From Sinomonas sp. ASV322 (lineage in GTDB: Bacteria; Actinomycetota; Actinomycetes; Actinomycetales; Micrococcaceae), in contig NZ_JAVFJJ010000001.1 in NCBI RefSeq assembly GCF_030908245.1, positions 169,565 to 233,564 on the forward strand: a DNA stretch of 64,000 nucleotides, read 5' to 3'. Under the pieces are notes generated by a model. The model had not been told where the DNA came from, ran no database searches, and saw only the letters and a program-made list of their open reading frames with translations. Position numbers and translations under genes: made by a program. Positions 11,369 through 19,128 of the stretch are shown here, piece by piece (the first letter of the stretch is position 1; every line of letters starts with the position of its first letter).

Positions 11369-12352
11369 CTAGCTCGTGAGCCCCGGGACGAGAAGAAGCA
11401 CTGTGGGGACGGCGAGAAGAAGCGCAGAAGCCGCGAGCACGGCCGTCCTCGCGGCCCCGCCGAGCGGCGGCCGCGGGCTCAGGAGACGGCCGACCCTCGA
11501 CGCGAGGGACGCTTCGCCTTCGTCCGGCATCCCGCTCTCGGAGCGGGCGTCGGCCACAGTCGTTGTGACGGCGGCGGCCCCGCCTTCCGATGCCCCTTCG
11601 CTGCGGCCGAGCGCGACGAGTGCGATGGCGCGGACGAGGACACCGTCGGGCGTAGTCCGGCGTGCGACGTCGTCCGCGAGCATCTCGACGAGCGAGGACA
11701 CAGCCTGCCGGGAGAGGCGAGAGGTCGGGAGCCACGGAAGTGCCTGGCGCCACGCCTCGAACGCCCAGAGGAGCAGGTGGTGGCGTTGCGTCAGGTGGGC
11801 CCGTTCGTGGTCGACGACGGCGGCGAGCTCATCCGGCGTGAGGACCTCCATGAGCCCGTCGGAGAGGACCGTGACGGACCGCGAGCCCCCGGGAAGACAG
11901 TATGCGACCGGAGCCGGATGGCTGATGACGAGCGTGCGTTCCATGGCTCCCGACGGCGAGCTGAGCACTTCGAGGAGCTCTCGGTGCCGCCGGCGCTGGG
12001 TCGTGATGCGCGCATACGTGAGCCCGAGCGTGAACACGAGGTGTGTTCCGAGCAGCGCCGCAGCGCACAGGGCGAAGAAGTGCCAGAAGGGCAGTTCCGC
12101 CGACGAGCGATTGCCCAAGATGATCTCGGCGGCTCGCCGCACCGCGTGGATGAGGTTGTCCCCGAGCGGTTCGAGGCCGTAGACGAGCATCGCGCCGATC
12201 ATCGAGAGCCCGCCCGCGAGCGCGATCGACTGCCACAGGACCATCGCCGTAAAAGGTGACCGCGATGTCCAACGCGCGCGGGAGAGGGCCACTGGCACCG
12301 GCCATGCGAGCAGGACTGCCAGCAGTGCGAGGAGGTACGCGGTCAGGAGCAC
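11369..12352 (-). CDS. M56 family (BlaR1-like) membrane metallopeptidase
   Basis: A 327-aa protein with N-terminal membrane helices (about 1-20, 35-60, 90-115), a cytoplasmic zinc protease domain with HERAH in VVDHERAHLTQRHH, and a C-terminal hydrophobic segment. There is no penicillin-binding sensor domain, unlike true BlaR1. The expected role is to cleave the partner BlaI repressor when a signal is sensed. It follows blaI by 27 nt in one operon. The signal is unknown; the adjacent bd oxidase operon suggests a respiratory or redox cue. Confidence 0.85.
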   Translation of the reverse strand: MLLTAYLLALLAVLLAWPVPVALSRARWTSRSPFTAMVLWQSIALAGGLSMIGAMLVYGLEPLGDNLIHAVRRAAEIILGNRSSAELPFWHFFALCAAALLGTHLVFTLGLTYARITTQRRRHRELLEVLSSPSGAMERTLVISHPAPVAYCLPGGSRSVTVLSDGLMEVLTPDELAAVVDHERAHLTQRHHLLLWAFEAWRQALPWLPTSRLSRQAVSSLVEMLADDVARRTTPDGVLVRAIALVALGRSEGASEGGAAAVTTTVADARSESGMPDEGEASLASRVGRLLSPRPPLGGAARTAVLAASALLLAVPTVLLLVPGLTS

Positions 12353-12379: not shown

Positions 12380-12751
12380 TCAGCCGCGCGACAGAAGCCT
12401 GCGCAGAGTCGCGGCCTCGGCCTCGCTCACGCTGCCGATGAAGCGGGCGAGGACGGCCTCGCGGTCGGGCGCCGTGCCGAGGGCTTCGTGCATGAGCCGG
12501 GCCGTGTGGTCTTCGCGCGTCGAGACGGCGCGGTAGCGATGCGGACGCGTTCCGCGCTCGCGCTCCACGAGGCCCTTCTTCTCGAGCCGGGAGAGGACGG
12601 TCAGGACCGTCGTGACCGCGAGATCCTTCGCCTCGTGATCCTGCCCCTCGCTCTGGGCCAGGCGGTCCCGCAGCTCATTTGCGGTGGAGGCCTCCGATGT
12701 GGACCACAGCTGGTCCATCACTGAACGCTCGAGCTCCCCGAGGCTTGCCAT
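12380..12751 (-). CDS. BlaI/MecI/CopY family repressor
   Basis: A 123-aa winged-helix repressor. The N-terminal DNA-binding domain covers about 1-80, with LAVTTVLTVLSRLEKKGLVE and the wing RGTRPHRYRAV. A short dimerisation tail ends LLSRG. BlaI proteins bind TAC-N-GTA dyads as dimers and are inactivated by a partner M56 protease, which is encoded directly downstream. Three 17-bp TTCTAC-N5-GTAGAA dyads lie between this gene and cydA. They are the likely binding sites, implying autoregulation and control of cydA-cydB-cydDC. Confidence 0.9.
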   Translation of the reverse strand: MASLGELERSVMDQLWSTSEASTANELRDRLAQSEGQDHEAKDLAVTTVLTVLSRLEKKGLVERERGTRPHRYRAVSTREDHTARLMHEALGTAPDREAVLARFIGSVSEAEAATLRRLLSRG

Positions 12752-12826: not shown

Positions 12827-12843
12827 TTCTACGTGAGGTAGAA
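12827..12843. promoter_or_regulatory. BlaI-type operator in front of blaI
   Basis: TTCTACGTGAGGTAGAA is a dyad of 6-bp arms around 5 nt, 76 nt before the blaI start. On the minus strand it overlaps TAGAAT, a plausible -10. It shares both arms with the two sites next to cydA. Confidence 0.7.
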
Positions 12844-12953
12844 GAAGGGCGCAGCACAAGCCTAGCGTGTTCGCTGTCGGCGGCACGCGTGGCGCGACAG
12901 TGCCGGTGCGCCGGCGCGGAAGTGCTGTGGGGGTGCGGGGCCCGACCGAAGTG

Positions 12954-12970
12954 TTCTACACTCTGTAGAA
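12954..12970. promoter_or_regulatory. BlaI-type operator 1 upstream of cydA
   Basis: TTCTACACTCTGTAGAA has 7-bp perfect arms (TTCTACA / TGTAGAA). It lies 53 nt before the cydA ATG and matches the site in front of blaI. Confidence 0.75.
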
Positions 12971-12977
12971 GAATCAT

Positions 12978-12994
12978 TTCTACGGAACGTAGAA
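12978..12994. promoter_or_regulatory. BlaI-type operator 2 upstream of cydA
   Basis: TTCTACGGAACGTAGAA has 7-bp perfect arms (TTCTACG / CGTAGAA), centred 24 bp from operator 1 and 29 nt before the cydA ATG. The spacing of just over two helical turns would let two repressor dimers sit on about the same face. Confidence 0.75.
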
Positions 12995-13022: not shown

Positions 13023-14609
13023 ATGGACGCCTTGGAAATCGCCCGCTGGCAGTTCGGCATCACGACTGTCTACCACTTCATGATGGTTCCGCTGACCATC
13101 GGACTCGGCCTCGTCGTCGCCGTCATGCAGACGGCCTGGAAACGCACCGGCAAGGCCGAATACCTCAGGATGACCAAGTTCTGGGGCAAGCTCTTCCTCA
13201 TCAACTTCATCATGGGCGTCGCGACGGGCATCGTGCAGGAGTTCCAGTTCGGCATGGCGTGGAGCGAGTACAGCCGCTTCGTCGGTGATGTCTTCGGGGC
13301 GCCGCTCGCCATGGAGGCGCTCCTCGCGTTCTTCGTCGAGTCGACGTTCCTCGGGCTCTGGATCTTCGGATGGAAGCTCCTGCGCCCGGGCCTCCACCTC
13401 GCCGCCCTGTGGTGTGCCGTCATCGGCTCGGCCGTCTCGGCGTATTTCATCATCGTCGCGAACAGCTGGATGCAGCATCCGGTGGGCGTGACCGTCGTCA
13501 ACGGCCGGCCGGTCATGACCGACCCCTGGGCCGTCTTCACGAACAACACGGCACTTGTCGCCGTGCCCCACACGCTCCTCGGCGCCCTCGGCGTCGCGGG
13601 AGCGTTCCTCCTCGGCATCTCGTGGTACCACCTGTGGCAGCGCCGGCGCGACGGCATCGACACGGCGGGCGCCGACGGGCGCGTGATCCCCGGGGAGGAC
13701 CTCGAGCTCCCGGGCCGCGACCGGACCGACCACCGCGTGTGGCTGCGCAGCCTGCGCATCGGTGCCGTCGTCGCCATGATCTCCTTTGCCGGCACGGCGA
13801 TCACGGGTGACATTCAAGGCAAGCTCATGTTCGAGCAGCAGCCCATGAAGATGGCCGCGGCCGAGGCCGCGTGCCACGACGGGACGAGCTTCTCCGTCCT
13901 GTCCGTTGGCGACGTCGGCTCGAAGGACTGCTCGAACGTGGCCGCGGTCATCGAGATCCCGGGCCTCCTCTCCTTCCTCGCAAAGGGCGACTTCTCGACC
14001 GACGTCAAGGGCGTCAACAGCCTCCAGAGCCAGTACAGGCACGCCTACGGCACGAACCTTCCGAACAATCCCATCTACGGCGACCGGGCCGGCCAGCCGA
14101 TCCAGTACGTACCCGTCATGGAGGTCACCTATTGGGGCTTCCGGATGATGATCGGCTTCGGCGGGCTCGCAGCCCTTGCTGCCGCCGTCGCGCTCTATCT
14201 CACGCGCAAGGGCACGGTGCCGCAGTCGCGGTGGCTCATGCGGCTCGCCGTCGTCGGCATCCTCGCGCCTTTCGGCGCGAACGCTGCGGGCTGGATCTTC
14301 ACCGAGATGGGCCGCCAGCCGTTCGTCGTCGCGCCGAATCCCGCCATGGCCGGGAGCGTGGATCAGGTGTTCATGTTCACCGCGGCCGCCGTCTCGCCGG
14401 GCGTGAGCGCAGGAGAGATTCTCACCTCTCTCATCGTCCTCACACTCATCTACGCGGCCCTCATGGTCGTCGAGGTCCGGCTTCTGTGGCGCTACACGCG
14501 CGGCGGCGTCGCCTCCGCGATGCCCGAGCTCACGGCCCCGCACAGTGGCAAAGGGGACGGGCCGGGAGACGGCAAGCAGTCCGACGACGTCCTGGCCTTC
14601 GCCTACTAG
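13023..14609 (+). CDS. cydA: Cytochrome bd oxidase subunit I
   Basis: Quinol-oxidising, haem-bearing subunit of cytochrome bd, a high-affinity terminal oxidase in the plasma membrane. The 528-aa protein has about nine hydrophobic helices. Candidate haem ligands are His18 (TTVYHFMMVP), His183 (VAVPHTLLGALG) and a Met at 375/376 (WGFRMMIGFGG). The quinol-site GRQPF motif is present in FTEMGRQPFVVAPN. The periplasmic loop is of moderate length. ATG 13023 follows AGGAG. It is first in the cydA-cydB-cydDC operon, and two BlaI-like operators lie in its promoter region. Confidence 0.96.
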   Translation: MDALEIARWQFGITTVYHFMMVPLTIGLGLVVAVMQTAWKRTGKAEYLRMTKFWGKLFLINFIMGVATGIVQEFQFGMAWSEYSRFVGDVFGAPLAMEALLAFFVESTFLGLWIFGWKLLRPGLHLAALWCAVIGSAVSAYFIIVANSWMQHPVGVTVVNGRPVMTDPWAVFTNNTALVAVPHTLLGALGVAGAFLLGISWYHLWQRRRDGIDTAGADGRVIPGEDLELPGRDRTDHRVWLRSLRIGAVVAMISFAGTAITGDIQGKLMFEQQPMKMAAAEAACHDGTSFSVLSVGDVGSKDCSNVAAVIEIPGLLSFLAKGDFSTDVKGVNSLQSQYRHAYGTNLPNNPIYGDRAGQPIQYVPVMEVTYWGFRMMIGFGGLAALAAAVALYLTRKGTVPQSRWLMRLAVVGILAPFGANAAGWIFTEMGRQPFVVAPNPAMAGSVDQVFMFTAAAVSPGVSAGEILTSLIVLTLIYAALMVVEVRLLWRYTRGGVASAMPELTAPHSGKGDGPGDGKQSDDVLAFAY

Positions 14610-14618
14610 GAGCGCACC

Positions 14619-15704
14619 ATGTCTTCAGAAGTTCTGCCCACCGTCTGGTTCTCCGCGGTCGCCGTCCTCTGGATCGGCTACCTCTTCCTCGAAGGCTTCG
14701 ACCTCGGGGTCGGTATGCTCATGAAGCTCTTCGCCCGCAGCGATGCCGAGCGGCGCGTGCTGCTCAACACGATCGGCCCCGTGTGGGACGGCAACGAGGT
14801 GTGGCTCCTCACCGCGGGCGGCGCCACCTTCGCAGCGTTCCCGCGCTGGTACGCGTCGCTGTTCTCTGGCCTGTACCTGCCGCTCACCCTGGCCCTCGTC
14901 GCGCTCATCTTCCGCGCTGTCGCGTTCGAATACCGCGGCAAGATCGTCTCGGAGCGGTGGACGCGCGCATGGGACTGGGCCATAGCGCTCGGCTCGGGAG
15001 TTGCGGCGTTCTGCGTCGGGGCCATGCTCGCCCTCACGACGACCGGCCTCCCCCTCAACGCGAACGGCGACCGGGTGGGAGGGCCGTTCGCGTGGCTCAA
15101 CGGGTACGCCGTGCTCGGCGGCGTGGCCGTCGTCGCCTTTGCGCTCGTCCACGCGCTCGCCTTCCTCGCGCTCAAGACCGACGGTGAGATCCGTTCGAGG
15201 GCCCACCGCTCGTTCCGCCGTTGGATGCCCCTCGGGCTCCTTCCGCTCGTCGCGTGGGTCGCCGTCGTCCAGCTCGCCGACGGCAAGTGGTGGAGCTGGG
15301 TCCTCACGGGCCTCGCGGCCGTCGCGGCATTGGCATCGTGGATGCTCGCGAACAGGGGATCGGAAGGCCGCGCGTTTCTGCTCCTCGCGGGCTTCCTCGC
15401 GACCGGCGCGGCAGCGATCTTCAGCGCCGTGTTTCCCGTCGTGCTTCCCTCGACCCTCGACGCGGCGCACAGCCTCACGGTCACGAACGCGTCGTCGTCC
15501 GCGACGACGCTCGGGCTCATGACGGTCGTCGCGCTCATCGGCCTCCCGCTCGTCCTCGCGTATCAGAGCTGGACCTACTGGGTGTTCCGCAAGCGGATCA
15601 CGGTGGGCAGCATCCCGAGCGCACACAACGTCGTGCCCGCGTTTGTCGCCCGGATCGTGACGGGCCGCAGCCCCGCGGATGGCTCGCCCGCGGCAGGAGC
15701 CTGA
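14619..15704 (+). CDS. cydB: Cytochrome bd oxidase subunit II
   Basis: Second structural subunit of cytochrome bd. The 361-aa protein has about eight membrane helices and the family signatures WIGYLFLEGFDLGVGML near the N-terminus and GPVWDGNEVWLLTAGGATFA soon after. It starts 9 nt after the cydA stop with AGGAG upstream. The transporter gene follows 4 nt after its stop, so the three genes are one transcript. Confidence 0.96.
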   Translation: MSSEVLPTVWFSAVAVLWIGYLFLEGFDLGVGMLMKLFARSDAERRVLLNTIGPVWDGNEVWLLTAGGATFAAFPRWYASLFSGLYLPLTLALVALIFRAVAFEYRGKIVSERWTRAWDWAIALGSGVAAFCVGAMLALTTTGLPLNANGDRVGGPFAWLNGYAVLGGVAVVAFALVHALAFLALKTDGEIRSRAHRSFRRWMPLGLLPLVAWVAVVQLADGKWWSWVLTGLAAVAALASWMLANRGSEGRAFLLLAGFLATGAAAIFSAVFPVVLPSTLDAAHSLTVTNASSSATTLGLMTVVALIGLPLVLAYQSWTYWVFRKRITVGSIPSAHNVVPAFVARIVTGRSPADGSPAAGA

Positions 15705-15708
15705 GCCC

Positions 15709-18700
15709 ATGCGCCCCAGCGTCCCGCCCGGCCGCACGACCAAGGCCGCGCTCGCCGTCCTCGGCGTCCTCGCGGTCGCCAAGGCCGCTGGCCTCGTGCT
15801 CGTCGCGCAGGGCCTCGCGACCGGCCTCTCCGACGCGTTCGCCGGCGCGCCCGACGGGCCGGGCGCGTGGCGCGGGGCGGCGCTCATGGCGGCTGCCGGC
15901 GTCGTCGTGCGCGCGGTGGCGGAGTGGGGCTCGCTCCAGGCGGGGCGCTGGGCCGCAGTGGGCGTGCGCGAAGAGCTCCGAGCACGGCTCGTGGGCGGGG
16001 CCCTCGAGCACGGCGGCCGCGCCGCGCCGGACGGGCCGGCGGGGGCAGAGGACGACGGCGCTGCCCGCGTCGCGTCGTCGGCTGCCGCGACCGCCGTGCT
16101 TGCCGTGCGCGGCCTCGACGCCCTCGACGCGTACTACACGGCGTACCTCCCGGCCCTTGTGCAATGCGCCGCGATTCCGCTGCTCGTCGGCGCGCGCGTC
16201 CTGGGAGCCGACTGGGTGAGTGCGCTCATCATCGCGCTCACTCTGCCGCTCGTCCCCGTCTTCATGATCCTCATCGGCAAGCACACCGAGAATCGCGTCG
16301 CGGCGGCGCAGCACGCCCTCGCCCGCCTCGGCACACACCTCGTCGAGCTCGCCCAGGGGCTCCCCGTCCTCGTCGGCCTCGGAAGGGCCGGCGAGCAGCG
16401 CAGGGCGCTCCGTTCCATCTCGGAGGAGTTCTCGGCCCGAACGATGGCGACGCTGAGGGTCGCGTTCATGTCCTCACTCGCGCTCGAACTTCTCTCGACC
16501 ATCTCGGTCGCGGTCGTCGCGGTCTTCATCGGGGTTCGGCTCGTCAACGGCGAGCTCCCGCTTGAGACCGGCATCCTGGCCCTCGTCCTCGCCCCCGAGT
16601 GCTTCCAGCCAGTGCGCGACCTTGGAACCGCGCACCATGCGAGCCAGGACGGAATCGAGGCCCTTCGGCGGGCCGAGGACGCGATCGCCCGTCCGCACGG
16701 CACCCCGCTCGCGCGAGCCGCCGGCATCGCGTCTGATCAACCTGGCCTTTCGGCGCCGACCGCCCTGCGCGCCGAAGGCCTCCGCGTCCGGTATGACGGC
16801 CGCGACGACGCGGTGCTCGACGGCATCTCCTTCACGGCCCCCGCGGGGGAGATCACGCTGCTCGCGGGGCCGAGCGGGGCCGGCAAGACGACGCTCCTGC
16901 ACGTCGTCGCCGGACTCGTCTGTGACGGCGCCGCGGCGAGCGTCCGCGGCGCGCTCGCGGGGGCAGAGCCCGAGCGCATCGCCTACGTTCCGCAGCATCC
17001 GCAGTTCACCGAGCCGAGCGTCGGCGCCGAGCTCGCCCTCGCCGCAGAGGGGATCCCCGGGGATCAGGCTGAAGCCGCCGTCGCCCACGTGCTCGATGCC
17101 GTCCTGTGCACGGGACTCGCCTCGGCCGCCCCCGCGGAGCTGAGCCCCGGGCAGCAGCGGCGCATCGCCGTCGCCCGCGGCCTCCTCCGCGTCCGCGCGG
17201 GCGCGACCCTCGTGCTCCTCGACGAGCCCACCGCCCATCTCGACGCGCGATCGGCCAGCGCCGTCGAGGCCGCTATCGCGGCTCTCCGCGGAAGCGCGAC
17301 CGTGCTGCTCATCGCCCACGATCCCGCGACGGCGGCGCTCGCCACCACTCGCGTCGAGCTCGCGGCCGCGCCACGCGAGGTCGCGGAGCCCGCGACTCCA
17401 CCCGTCGCGGGCCGCTTCGAGGTGGACTCGTTCGCGCCGGATGAGAGTGCCGCGCGCGCGGGGTCAATACCGTGCGACGACGGGGCGGCGGCGCCCGGAG
17501 CGACCCTCCGCGCGCTGTGGAGCCTCACCCGCCCTGACCTGGCCCGGTATCTCCTCGCCGCCTTCGCAGGGCTCGGGTCCGCGTCGGCGGCCGCGGCGCT
17601 CGCGGGCCTCTCCGGCTGGCTCATTGTGCGCGCCGCCGAACATCCGCCGATCCTGTACCTTCTCGCGGCGATCGTCGGCGTGCGGTTCTTCGGGATCGCG
17701 CGCGCGGTGCTCCGCTACGCCGAGCGGCTCGCGACCCACGCCGCCGTCTTCGCGACCCTCACGGCACTGCGCGACAGGCTCTGGCGCTCGCTCGCGTCCC
17801 GTGGCCTGAGCGCGCGTCGGCTCCTCGTCCCGGGCGCCGCGCTGGAAAGCCTTATCGGGGACGCCGAGTCCGTCCGGGACGAGCTTCCGCGCGTCGTCCA
17901 GCCCGTCGCGACAGCTGTCCTCGTTGGCGTGGCTTCGCTTGTCGCGATTGGCTGGCTCCTGCCGGGGCAGGTTCCCCCGCTGGCGTGCGCCGAACTGGCG
18001 GCACTCGTGGTTGCACCGATCGCAACCCTCTGGGCGGACCGCCGTGCCGCACGCGACATCCAGGCCGGGCGAGCGCGCCTGCTCGAAAGGATCGGGCAGG
18101 TGCTCTCGGCGGCCAACGACATCAAGGCCAACGGGCTCGCGCCGCGAGTCCTCGCGTCCATCACGGCGGACGATCGCCGACTGGCCGCATTCGAGCGCCG
18201 CGGAATCGCCGCGGAGGGGCTCGGCAAGTCCCTCGTCGTCTTGGCCATGGGGTTCGCCGCCGTCGCAACGCTCGCGCCGGGCAGCGCGCCCGCGCCGGTC
18301 CTGGCCGCCGTCGTCATGCTGCAGCTCGCGCTCGCCGAGCCGTTCGCGGCGGCGAGCACCGCGGCCCAGCGGGTTCCCGCACTCCGTTCAGCCCTGCGTG
18401 GCCTAGTGCAGGCCTCGCGCGAGGGCGACGCGCGGGCCGTGCAGCCTTCCGCGGGGCCGCACCCCGAAATGCCCCGGCCCTCTGAGGGGTTGGCGATCGA
18501 GGGCTTGGCGGCGGGATGGCCAGGGGGCCATGACGTCTTCGGTGGCCTCGACGCCGTCGTTGACCCGGGGGAGTGGCTCATCGTGGCAGGACCATCGGGA
18601 AGCGGCAAGACCACGCTTCTCGCGGTGCTCCTCGGCTTCCTTGCGCCGCGCGCCGGGGCCGTCCGCGTCGGCGGCCGCGTCGCATGGTGCCCCCAGGAGT

Positions 18701-19128
18701 CCCATCTGTTCGACTCGACCTTCCGTGGGAACCTTGCCGTCGCGCGTGCCCGTGAGGATGCACCGGACGACGACGAGCTGTGGGCCGTGCTCGACCGCGT
18801 CGGCCTCGGCGACCATGTCCGCGGGCTTCCCGGCGGGCTCGACGCGCGGATCGGAAGCCGCGGCTCCCAGCTCTCGGGAGGCCAGCGCCAGCGGCTCGCC
18901 GTCGCACGCACGCTCGTCGCGGGCGCCGCCGTCGTCCTCCTCGACGAGCCGACGGCGCACTTGGATCCCGAAGCTGCCCACGAGCTCGTCTCCGCCCTGC
19001 ACACGGCCCTCGCCGACCGCGCCGTCATCATGGTCACCCACCGCGCGGCGGAGCTTCGGGACGGGGATCTGCTCGTCCGGCTGGACGCCCTCGGCGATGG
19101 CGTCCGGCGGTTCGCGCTCGCGAGCTGA
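15709..19128 (+). CDS. cydDC: Fused CydDC thiol reductant ABC exporter
   Basis: CydD and CydC, separate in E. coli, are fused here into one 1139-aa protein with the order TMD-NBD-TMD-NBD. It exports cysteine/glutathione-type reductant, or handles haem, for bd oxidase assembly. NBD1 has Walker A GPSGAGKTTLL (about 387), an altered signature LSPGQQRR (about 479) and Walker B VLLDEPTAHLD (about 503). NBD2 has GPSGSGKTTLL (about 961), a normal LSGGQRQRLAVART (about 1055) and VLLDEPTAHLD (about 1077). ATG 15709 is chosen over ATG 15679, which lies inside cydB, because AGGAG precedes it. Fused forms are usual in actinobacteria. Confidence 0.92.
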   Translation: MRPSVPPGRTTKAALAVLGVLAVAKAAGLVLVAQGLATGLSDAFAGAPDGPGAWRGAALMAAAGVVVRAVAEWGSLQAGRWAAVGVREELRARLVGGALEHGGRAAPDGPAGAEDDGAARVASSAAATAVLAVRGLDALDAYYTAYLPALVQCAAIPLLVGARVLGADWVSALIIALTLPLVPVFMILIGKHTENRVAAAQHALARLGTHLVELAQGLPVLVGLGRAGEQRRALRSISEEFSARTMATLRVAFMSSLALELLSTISVAVVAVFIGVRLVNGELPLETGILALVLAPECFQPVRDLGTAHHASQDGIEALRRAEDAIARPHGTPLARAAGIASDQPGLSAPTALRAEGLRVRYDGRDDAVLDGISFTAPAGEITLLAGPSGAGKTTLLHVVAGLVCDGAAASVRGALAGAEPERIAYVPQHPQFTEPSVGAELALAAEGIPGDQAEAAVAHVLDAVLCTGLASAAPAELSPGQQRRIAVARGLLRVRAGATLVLLDEPTAHLDARSASAVEAAIAALRGSATVLLIAHDPATAALATTRVELAAAPREVAEPATPPVAGRFEVDSFAPDESAARAGSIPCDDGAAAPGATLRALWSLTRPDLARYLLAAFAGLGSASAAAALAGLSGWLIVRAAEHPPILYLLAAIVGVRFFGIARAVLRYAERLATHAAVFATLTALRDRLWRSLASRGLSARRLLVPGAALESLIGDAESVRDELPRVVQPVATAVLVGVASLVAIGWLLPGQVPPLACAELAALVVAPIATLWADRRAARDIQAGRARLLERIGQVLSAANDIKANGLAPRVLASITADDRRLAAFERRGIAAEGLGKSLVVLAMGFAAVATLAPGSAPAPVLAAVVMLQLALAEPFAAASTAAQRVPALRSALRGLVQASREGDARAVQPSAGPHPEMPRPSEGLAIEGLAAGWPGGHDVFGGLDAVVDPGEWLIVAGPSGSGKTTLLAVLLGFLAPRAGAVRVGGRVAWCPQESHLFDSTFRGNLAVARAREDAPDDDELWAVLDRVGLGDHVRGLPGGLDARIGSRGSQLSGGQRQRLAVARTLVAGAAVVLLDEPTAHLDPEAAHELVSALHTALADRAVIMVTHRAAELRDGDLLVRLDALGDGVRRFALAS

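What the first reader, a model, noticed from the sequence alone, without database searches (positions are those of the whole stretch)
12827..12994. A BlaI/M56 pair appears to control the cytochrome bd operon
Three 17-bp dyads of one type, TTCTAC-N5-GTAGAA, lie in the 271-bp region between blaI and cydA: one 76 nt before blaI and two before cydA, centred 24 bp apart. BlaI proteins bind TAC/GTA dyads as dimers and are inactivated by a partner M56 protease, which is the next gene. The protease lacks the penicillin sensor of BlaR1. This suggests a protease-derepressed switch for a terminal oxidase instead of a beta-lactamase. No beta-lactamase gene is in the window.
Basis: partly seen in the sequence, partly recalled or inferred. 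Interest (0 to 1): 0.72.

Follow-up and report, generated by a model that had tools for sequence, protein, structure and literature searches.

The report
BlaI operator switch for respiratory oxidases
In Sinomonas, Arthrobacter and many related soil bacteria, a regulator best known from penicillin resistance has matching DNA landing sites in front of the genes for a backup respiratory enzyme and its helpers, which suggests that it switches respiration genes rather than resistance genes.

Summary
In 12 Sinomonas gaps the arms are invariant at 36 of 36 positions, the rest at 12 of 223. Where blaI is not beside cydA (two genomes), both keep dyads. Six genomes without BlaI have 0,0,0,0,0,1 dyads. 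All 71 perfect dyads in 12 genomes lie within 132 bp upstream of a few gene families: cydA, blaI, hemQ, flavohaemoglobin, cytochrome c maturation, copper genes and others. So this is a respiration and haem regulon, not a cydA-only switch. A motif variant sits before cydA and blaI in mycobacteria-like genomes. The protease folds like BlaR1 without the penicillin sensor. BlaI at cytochrome bd and ATP synthase promoters was already reported for M. tuberculosis (PMC5473688), so the link itself is not new; the adjacent operator layout, the breadth and the likely trigger appear to be. Repression, protease derepression and the signal are inferred, not shown.

The parts
12827..12843 (.). Dyad 1, TTCTAC-N5-GTAGAA, 75 nt before the blaI start: presumed BlaI operator of its own operon
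   Evidence: perfect match; arms invariant in 12 Sinomonas gaps; present in 80 of 80 relatives
12954..12970 (.). Dyad 2, distal of two before cydA: presumed BlaI operator
12978..12994 (.). Dyad 3, proximal, 28 nt before the cydA start: presumed BlaI operator
12380..12751 (-). blaI, 123-aa BlaI-family regulator
   Evidence: PF03965 76.6 bits, cut-off 22.6; closest solved structure 2g9w, E 3.7e-18
11369..12352 (-). 327-aa membrane zinc-metalloprotease, BlaR1-like without penicillin sensor
13023..14609 (+). cydA, cytochrome bd subunit I
   Evidence: PF01654 499 bits
14619..15704 (+). cydB, cytochrome bd subunit II
   Evidence: PF02322 330 bits; TIGR00203
15679..19128 (+). cydDC, fused thiol/haem ABC exporter; the longest frame overlaps cydB, so the true start is probably a little downstream
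   Evidence: TIGR02857 and TIGR02868 over cut-off

Best explanation
The dyads are operators of the BlaI encoded beside them. BlaI dimers sit on two tandem dyads at the cydABDC promoter and on one dyad at its own operon, and hold both down. The neighbouring membrane protease, built like BlaR1 but without the penicillin sensor, cuts BlaI when the main respiratory branch fails, and so releases cytochrome bd together with a small regulon for respiration, haem, cytochrome c, copper and nitric-oxide defence. Supported by comparison of sequences: the operators, their tie to BlaI, the regulon. Inferred from family knowledge: repression, and derepression by proteolysis (about 0.7). Inferred from published expression patterns in mycobacteria: the trigger is failure of the bcc:aa3 branch, for example by copper lack, cyanide or nitric oxide (about 0.4).
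For: 80 of 80 loci with three perfect dyads, blaI divergent from cydA and a protease match downstream of blaI. Footprint: arms 36 of 36 invariant, spacers 4 of 15, rest 12 of 223. 61 family genomes: 282 perfect dyads against 24 for the reversed pattern; the 6 genomes without BlaI hold 0,0,0,0,0,1, and the 3 of these with a full-length cydA have no dyad before it. In G004 and G034 blaI is unlinked from cydA and both genes keep dyads. 71 of 71 perfect dyads in 12 genomes lie within 132 bp upstream of an assigned gene start. Variant motif before cydA in 11 of 11 and before blaI in 7 of 9 mycobacteria-like loci, 0 in the other 19,520 bp. Protease. Trigger: copper deprivation of a chalkophore mutant of M. 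tuberculosis induces cydABDC, qcrABC and ATP synthase genes, a pattern its authors liken to bcc:aa3 inhibition (PMC12140626, one section); KCN induces cydA 388-fold in M. smegmatis (PMC7739888, passages).
Against: No binding, cleavage or expression data for this genus. No consensus promoter overlaps the cydA dyads, so the repressor role is inferred from position and family. In M. smegmatis cydA expression under KCN falls to 30% without Crp1, so BlaI would be only part of the control there. In the closest published pair, PetRP, copper activates the protease, the opposite sign to what induction of cydA by copper lack would need. Degenerate sites in this genome are not enriched as a class: up to 2 mismatches there are 96 matches against 160 for the reversed control. 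The BlaI-less genomes come from only three genera. Two genomes with only a 40% identical BlaI keep one dyad, before cydA.
Confidence: 0.78

Rival explanations
1. BlaI binds the dyads, but the pair answers to copper, as PetRP does in cyanobacteria: it balances a copper-free oxidase (bd) against the copper oxidase (aa3).
For: Copper-related CopC/orf206 genes carry the dyad at 3 of 71 sites in 12 genomes and, with one mismatch, in this genome; PetRP precedent; copper deprivation induces cydABDC in M. tuberculosis.
Against: Most targets are haem, cytochrome or globin genes rather than copper genes; Q203 and KCN, which do not remove copper, also induce cydA in mycobacteria; in PetRP copper activates the protease, the opposite sign.
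Confidence: 0.25
2. BlaI binds the dyads but works as an activator or dual regulator, or the protease no longer controls it.
For: PetR both represses and activates; no promoter could be placed relative to the dyads.
Against: Dyads lie 24-96 bp before cydA starts, where repressors usually act (recalled); the zinc-site residues are invariant in 61 proteases, so proteolysis is under selection.
Confidence: 0.15
3. Another transcription factor, not BlaI, binds the dyads.
For: No binding test was done; a few genomes with weak or no BlaI still hold one dyad.
Against: Dyad number tracks BlaI; dyads precede blaI itself even when unlinked from cydA; TAC/GTA dyads are the known BlaI type (recalled).
Confidence: 0.05
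4. The arms are RNA or DNA hairpins, for example a terminator.
For: One dyad scores as terminator-like on the minus strand.
Against: Arms are conserved by letter, not by pairing, and pair imperfectly in other families.
Confidence: 0.01

Closest known systems
BlaI-BlaR (Rv1846c-Rv1845c) of Mycobacterium tuberculosis
   Same: Sensor-less BlaR; BlaI reported at cytochrome bd and ATP synthase promoters (PMC5473688, passages; the primary paper Sala 2009 is not held). Variant dyads lie before cydA and blaI in mycobacteria-like genomes.
   Different: There blaI is unlinked to cydA and also controls the beta-lactamase gene blaC; here blaI lies against cydA and no class A beta-lactamase was found.
PetR-PetP of Synechocystis
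   Same: A BlaI-family factor and a BlaR1-family protease that switch an electron-transport component (PMC7896320, first of two parts of the text; PMC13421787, passages).
   Different: Targets are plastocyanin and cytochrome c6; copper activates the protease. Primary paper not held.
BlaI-BlaR1 of Staphylococcus aureus
   Different: BlaR1 senses beta-lactams with an extracellular domain and controls a beta-lactamase (PMC5473688, passages).
HrrSA of Corynebacterium glutamicum
   Same: Controls both oxidase branches and haem genes (PMC7337898, abstract).
   Different: A two-component system that responds to haem; unrelated proteins.

Membership tests
BlaI/MecI repressor family | Penicillinase_R (PF03965) domain over the curated cut-off | tested here: met
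   76.6 bits, cut-off 22.6
BlaI/MecI repressor family | TAC/GTA inverted repeat (recalled) at own and target promoters | tested here: met
   By sequence comparison only; binding itself not tested
BlaI/MecI repressor family | Cleavage next to a conserved Phe in the C-terminal part (recalled) | tested here: inconclusive
   A Phe is kept in at least 95% of 157 aligned sequences; that it marks the cleavage site is recalled
M56 / BlaR1 protease | HExxH zinc site plus downstream Glu | tested here: met
   H182, E183, H186, E223 invariant in 61 sequences
M56 / BlaR1 protease | Membrane and protease fold of BlaR1 | tested here: met
M56 / BlaR1 protease | Pfam M56 model over its cut-off | tested here: not met
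   PF05569 15.6 bits against 31; M48 (PF01435) is over its cut-off instead; 59 of 61 members match PF05569 at E up to 0.01
BlaR1 proper | C-terminal penicillin-sensor domain | tested here: not met
   327 aa, no sensor domain hit; alignment ends at residue 291 of a 556-residue BlaR1 chain. BlaR1-like, not a BlaR1
PetRP copper switch | Copper-activated proteolysis of the regulator | not testable with these tools
   Needs biochemistry
M. tuberculosis BlaI regulon | Operators at cytochrome bd and ATP synthase promoters | tested here: met
   cydA perfect; before atpI only a one-mismatch dyad, here and in 21 more of 30 BlaI-bearing family genomes chosen for the test
M. tuberculosis BlaI regulon | Control of a class A beta-lactamase | tested here: not met
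   No PF13354 match in this genome

The most novel reading that the evidence does not exclude
The BlaI-protease pair is an ancestral respiratory-failure switch of the class: a sensor-less BlaR1-like protease reads the state of the bcc:aa3 branch at the membrane, perhaps through the invariant cysteine of its AYCxPG strand, and releases cytochrome bd, the bcc:aa3 operon, ATP synthase, haem, cytochrome c and copper supply and NO-detoxifying globins together. It would be a missing regulator behind the copper-lack and Q203 response of mycobacteria.
Probability: 0.3. Interest if true: 0.82.

Novelty: new variant of a known kind. Interest (0 to 1): 0.62.

Why it matters
Cytochrome bd lets actinobacteria survive inhibition of their main oxidase, and how they sense that failure is only partly known. 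A conserved operator, a named regulator-protease pair and a list of co-regulated genes make the question directly testable in harmless soil bacteria. It also bears on annotation: neighbouring genes that carry the names penicillinase repressor and M56 or M48 peptidase are, in these bacteria, probably respiratory regulators.

Tried and rejected
Chance dyads: rejected. RNA hairpin: rejected, since arms are kept by letter, not by pairing, and pair imperfectly in other families. Beta-lactam role: class A beta-lactamase not found. One-mismatch sites taken alone as proof: rejected, because degenerate sites are not enriched in this genome; I leaned on them only where relatives keep them. At qcrC, this genome and the two other genomes of its genus have no site within one mismatch, so that target is not general; in mycobacteria-like genomes the six of genus g40 have none near qcrC, five of the other five have a one-mismatch site. 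Three dyads per gap is a feature of the closest relatives: in 35 of 35 family gaps read (of 46 neighbour pairs) there is at least one perfect dyad, but the number runs from one to three and some lack the blaI-side one. In f20 (large genomes, Streptomyces-like by size, a guess) the two cydA and two blaI upstream regions that I read have no dyad; also none before cydA in L293, L306 and L307, and in f18 four of the seven upstream regions read have only one-mismatch sites. In the class search 64 of 148 genomes have no BlaI match at E up to 1e-12. G011 and G040, with only a 40% identical BlaI, keep one dyad before cydA; the test counted them as without orthologue, and it ignores relatedness. AtpB matches in L391-L394 are weak (E 1e-7 to 3e-5) and three f7 genomes gave none. 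A Brachybacterium paper with a term hit for BlaI turned out to mean another gene. No report of the Micrococcaceae arrangement was seen in the searches; the library lacks most subscription journals. The plain Foldseek search against pdb was never run.

Full report
What is there. The window is from a Sinomonas-like genome (closest named BlaI 95% identical, Sinomonas albida). Between blaI (12380-12751, minus) and cydA (13023, plus) lie three perfect 17-bp dyads TTCTAC-N5-GTAGAA at 12827, 12954 and 12978. cydA, cydB and a fused cydDC follow. Behind blaI, after 27 nt, lies a 327-aa zinc-metalloprotease. The coordinates and spacings of the finding are right. At up to two mismatches the window has 4 matches, with 0.29 expected. 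The genome has two PF03965 matches; the other one is short and barely over the cut-off (24.3 bits against 22.6), so this BlaI is the only full-length one.

Conservation with gene order. A scan with BlaI kept the best 80 of 141 stretches that encode a relative, all from Sinomonas, Arthrobacter, Pseudarthrobacter and Paenarthrobacter records. In 80 of 80 cydA is divergent from blaI, a protease match lies downstream of blaI, and the gap holds three perfect dyads; the two cydA dyads stay 23-26 bp apart. In an alignment of 12 Sinomonas gaps including this one, dyad arms are invariant at 36 of 36 positions, the spacers at 4 of 15, all other positions at 12 of 223. This is what the footprint of a DNA-binding dimer looks like.

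Link to BlaI. In 61 genomes of the family the perfect dyad occurs 282 times against 24 for the reversed pattern. BlaI is found in 55 of 61. The six without BlaI have 0, 0, 0, 0, 0 and 1 dyads; two more with only a 40% identical BlaI have one each, which sits before cydA; the other 53 have 1-15, mean 5.3. The six come from three genera and so are not six independent losses, but two of these genera also hold a genome with BlaI and a dyad between blaI and cydA (G060, G043). Of the three BlaI-less genomes with a full-length cydA (G002, G035, G058) none has a dyad before it. By the coordinates, 46 of 48 genomes with both a BlaI of at least 50% identity and a full-length CydA have them as neighbours; in the 35 of these 46 gaps that read there is at least one perfect dyad. 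The two exceptions, G004 and G034 of one genus, have blaI on another contig, yet two dyads remain before cydA and one before blaI. Four genomes with BlaI but no CydA match still have 15, 5, 5 and 5 dyads. So the dyads follow BlaI, and cydA is one target among several.

The regulon. I read every perfect site of 12 of the 61 genomes (71 sites), the own one and 11 from the head of a listing that was cut. Each lies within 132 bp upstream of the start of a gene from a short list: cydA 23 (one of them, in L154, about as near to blaI), hemQ 9, blaI 7, an unknown membrane protein (orf126) 6, flavohaemoglobin 6, a pyridoxamine-oxidase-like protein 4, the gpm-resA cytochrome c maturation operon 3, a 117-aa membrane protein 3, copper-related CopC/orf206 genes 3, truncated haemoglobin 2, qcrC 2, a short unidentified protein 2, the ABC-ctaA operon 1. 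The query genes were drawn from neighbours of these same sites, so the full assignment is not an independent test; the recurrence of the same families across genera is. Family names come from Pfam where there was a hit; hemQ, truncated haemoglobin, SufR, AtpI and some others are recalled from sequence or gene order. In this genome the two perfect sites outside the window are before the cytochrome c maturation operon and orf126. One-mismatch sites lie before atpI, ABC-ctaA, hemQ and orf206; degenerate sites are not enriched here as a class, but the atpI one recurs: 22 of 30 BlaI-bearing family genomes, this one included. Around ctaE-qcrC 18 of 30 have a site within one mismatch, and this genome has none.

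Beyond the family. In 148 genomes of the class, 84 have a BlaI match at E up to 1e-12. Among the 28 best loci from outside the family (L239-L266), blaI is divergent from cydA in 4 of 4 of family f4 and 8 of 8 of f21; in f19 7 of 12 have a distant CydA-like gene (27-34%) nearby, and the four f18 loci have none. Three f26 loci and one f28 locus also show the divergent pair. In f21 the tandem dyads read TACTAC or TACGAC with GTCGTA or GTAGTA. I wrote one relaxed motif from this, TWCKACN5GTMGWA, and tested it on family f7, which had not been used to make it. f7 is mycobacteria-like: the first 55 residues of one of its BlaI proteins match PDB 2g9w at 2.9e-27; that 2g9w is M. tuberculosis BlaI is recalled. 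There blaI and cydA are far apart. The motif lies within 150 bp upstream of cydA in 11 of 11 loci and of blaI in 7 of 9, and nowhere in the other 19,520 bp; shuffles give 0.005 per set. Before ATP synthase it is matched fully in 4 of 8 f7 loci, some with weak AtpB matches. f20 loci lack it.

How it most likely works. BlaI represses cydABDC and its own operon from these dyads, and the protease removes it. Repression rests on position and family; no consensus promoter could be placed over the dyads. The signal is unknown. Published expression data fit failure of the bcc:aa3 branch: in M. tuberculosis copper deprivation of a chalkophore mutant induces cydABDC, qcrABC and ATP synthase genes, and inhibition of bcc:aa3, for example by Q203, induces cydAB and ATP synthase (PMC12140626, one section read); Q203 raises both cytochrome bcc and bd in M. 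smegmatis (PMC9498996, abstract). These operons carry the dyad or its variant in part of the genomes examined here. Against this, cydA under KCN falls to 30% without Crp1 in M. smegmatis, so another regulator carries most of that response, and in the related PetRP pair copper activates, not silences, the protease.

Novelty. The BlaI link to cytochrome bd and ATP synthase is in print for M. tuberculosis (PMC5473688, passages; the primary paper is not held), and sensor-less BlaR is described there too. A BlaI-protease pair that runs an electron-transport switch is in print for cyanobacteria. New here, as far as the searches named under Tried and rejected show, are the adjacent arrangement with invariant operators, the co-absence test, the wide respiration and haem regulon, and the reading of the pair as a respiratory-failure switch across the class.

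Noticed in passing
window 15679-19128: cydD and cydC are fused into one 1149-aa reading frame.
   Followed up: no
window 11369-12352 (protein residue C152): An invariant cysteine lies in the AYCxPG strand, 30 residues before the HExxH motif, in all 61 aligned proteases; a possible sensing residue.
   Followed up: partly
L248, L249, L254 (family f19): Two or three perfect dyads lie between blaI and a distant CydA-like gene (27-28% identity), so a different oxidase may have taken the same place.
   Followed up: no
G012 and G041 (genus g12): 15 and 13 perfect dyads, the largest sets in the 61 family genomes, with no or only a diverged CydA match: perhaps an expanded regulon.
   Followed up: no
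L005 1596-1976, L106 1116-1469, L175 1575-1835: Three protein families without Pfam hits (126, 117 and 86 aa) recur behind dyads and are candidates for unknown respiratory helpers.
   Followed up: partly
L112, L121, L130, L170, L181: Flavohaemoglobin genes with the dyad stand beside a small regulator gene (an Rrf2 protein in L112; the others look alike), which suggests double control of NO defence.
   Followed up: partly
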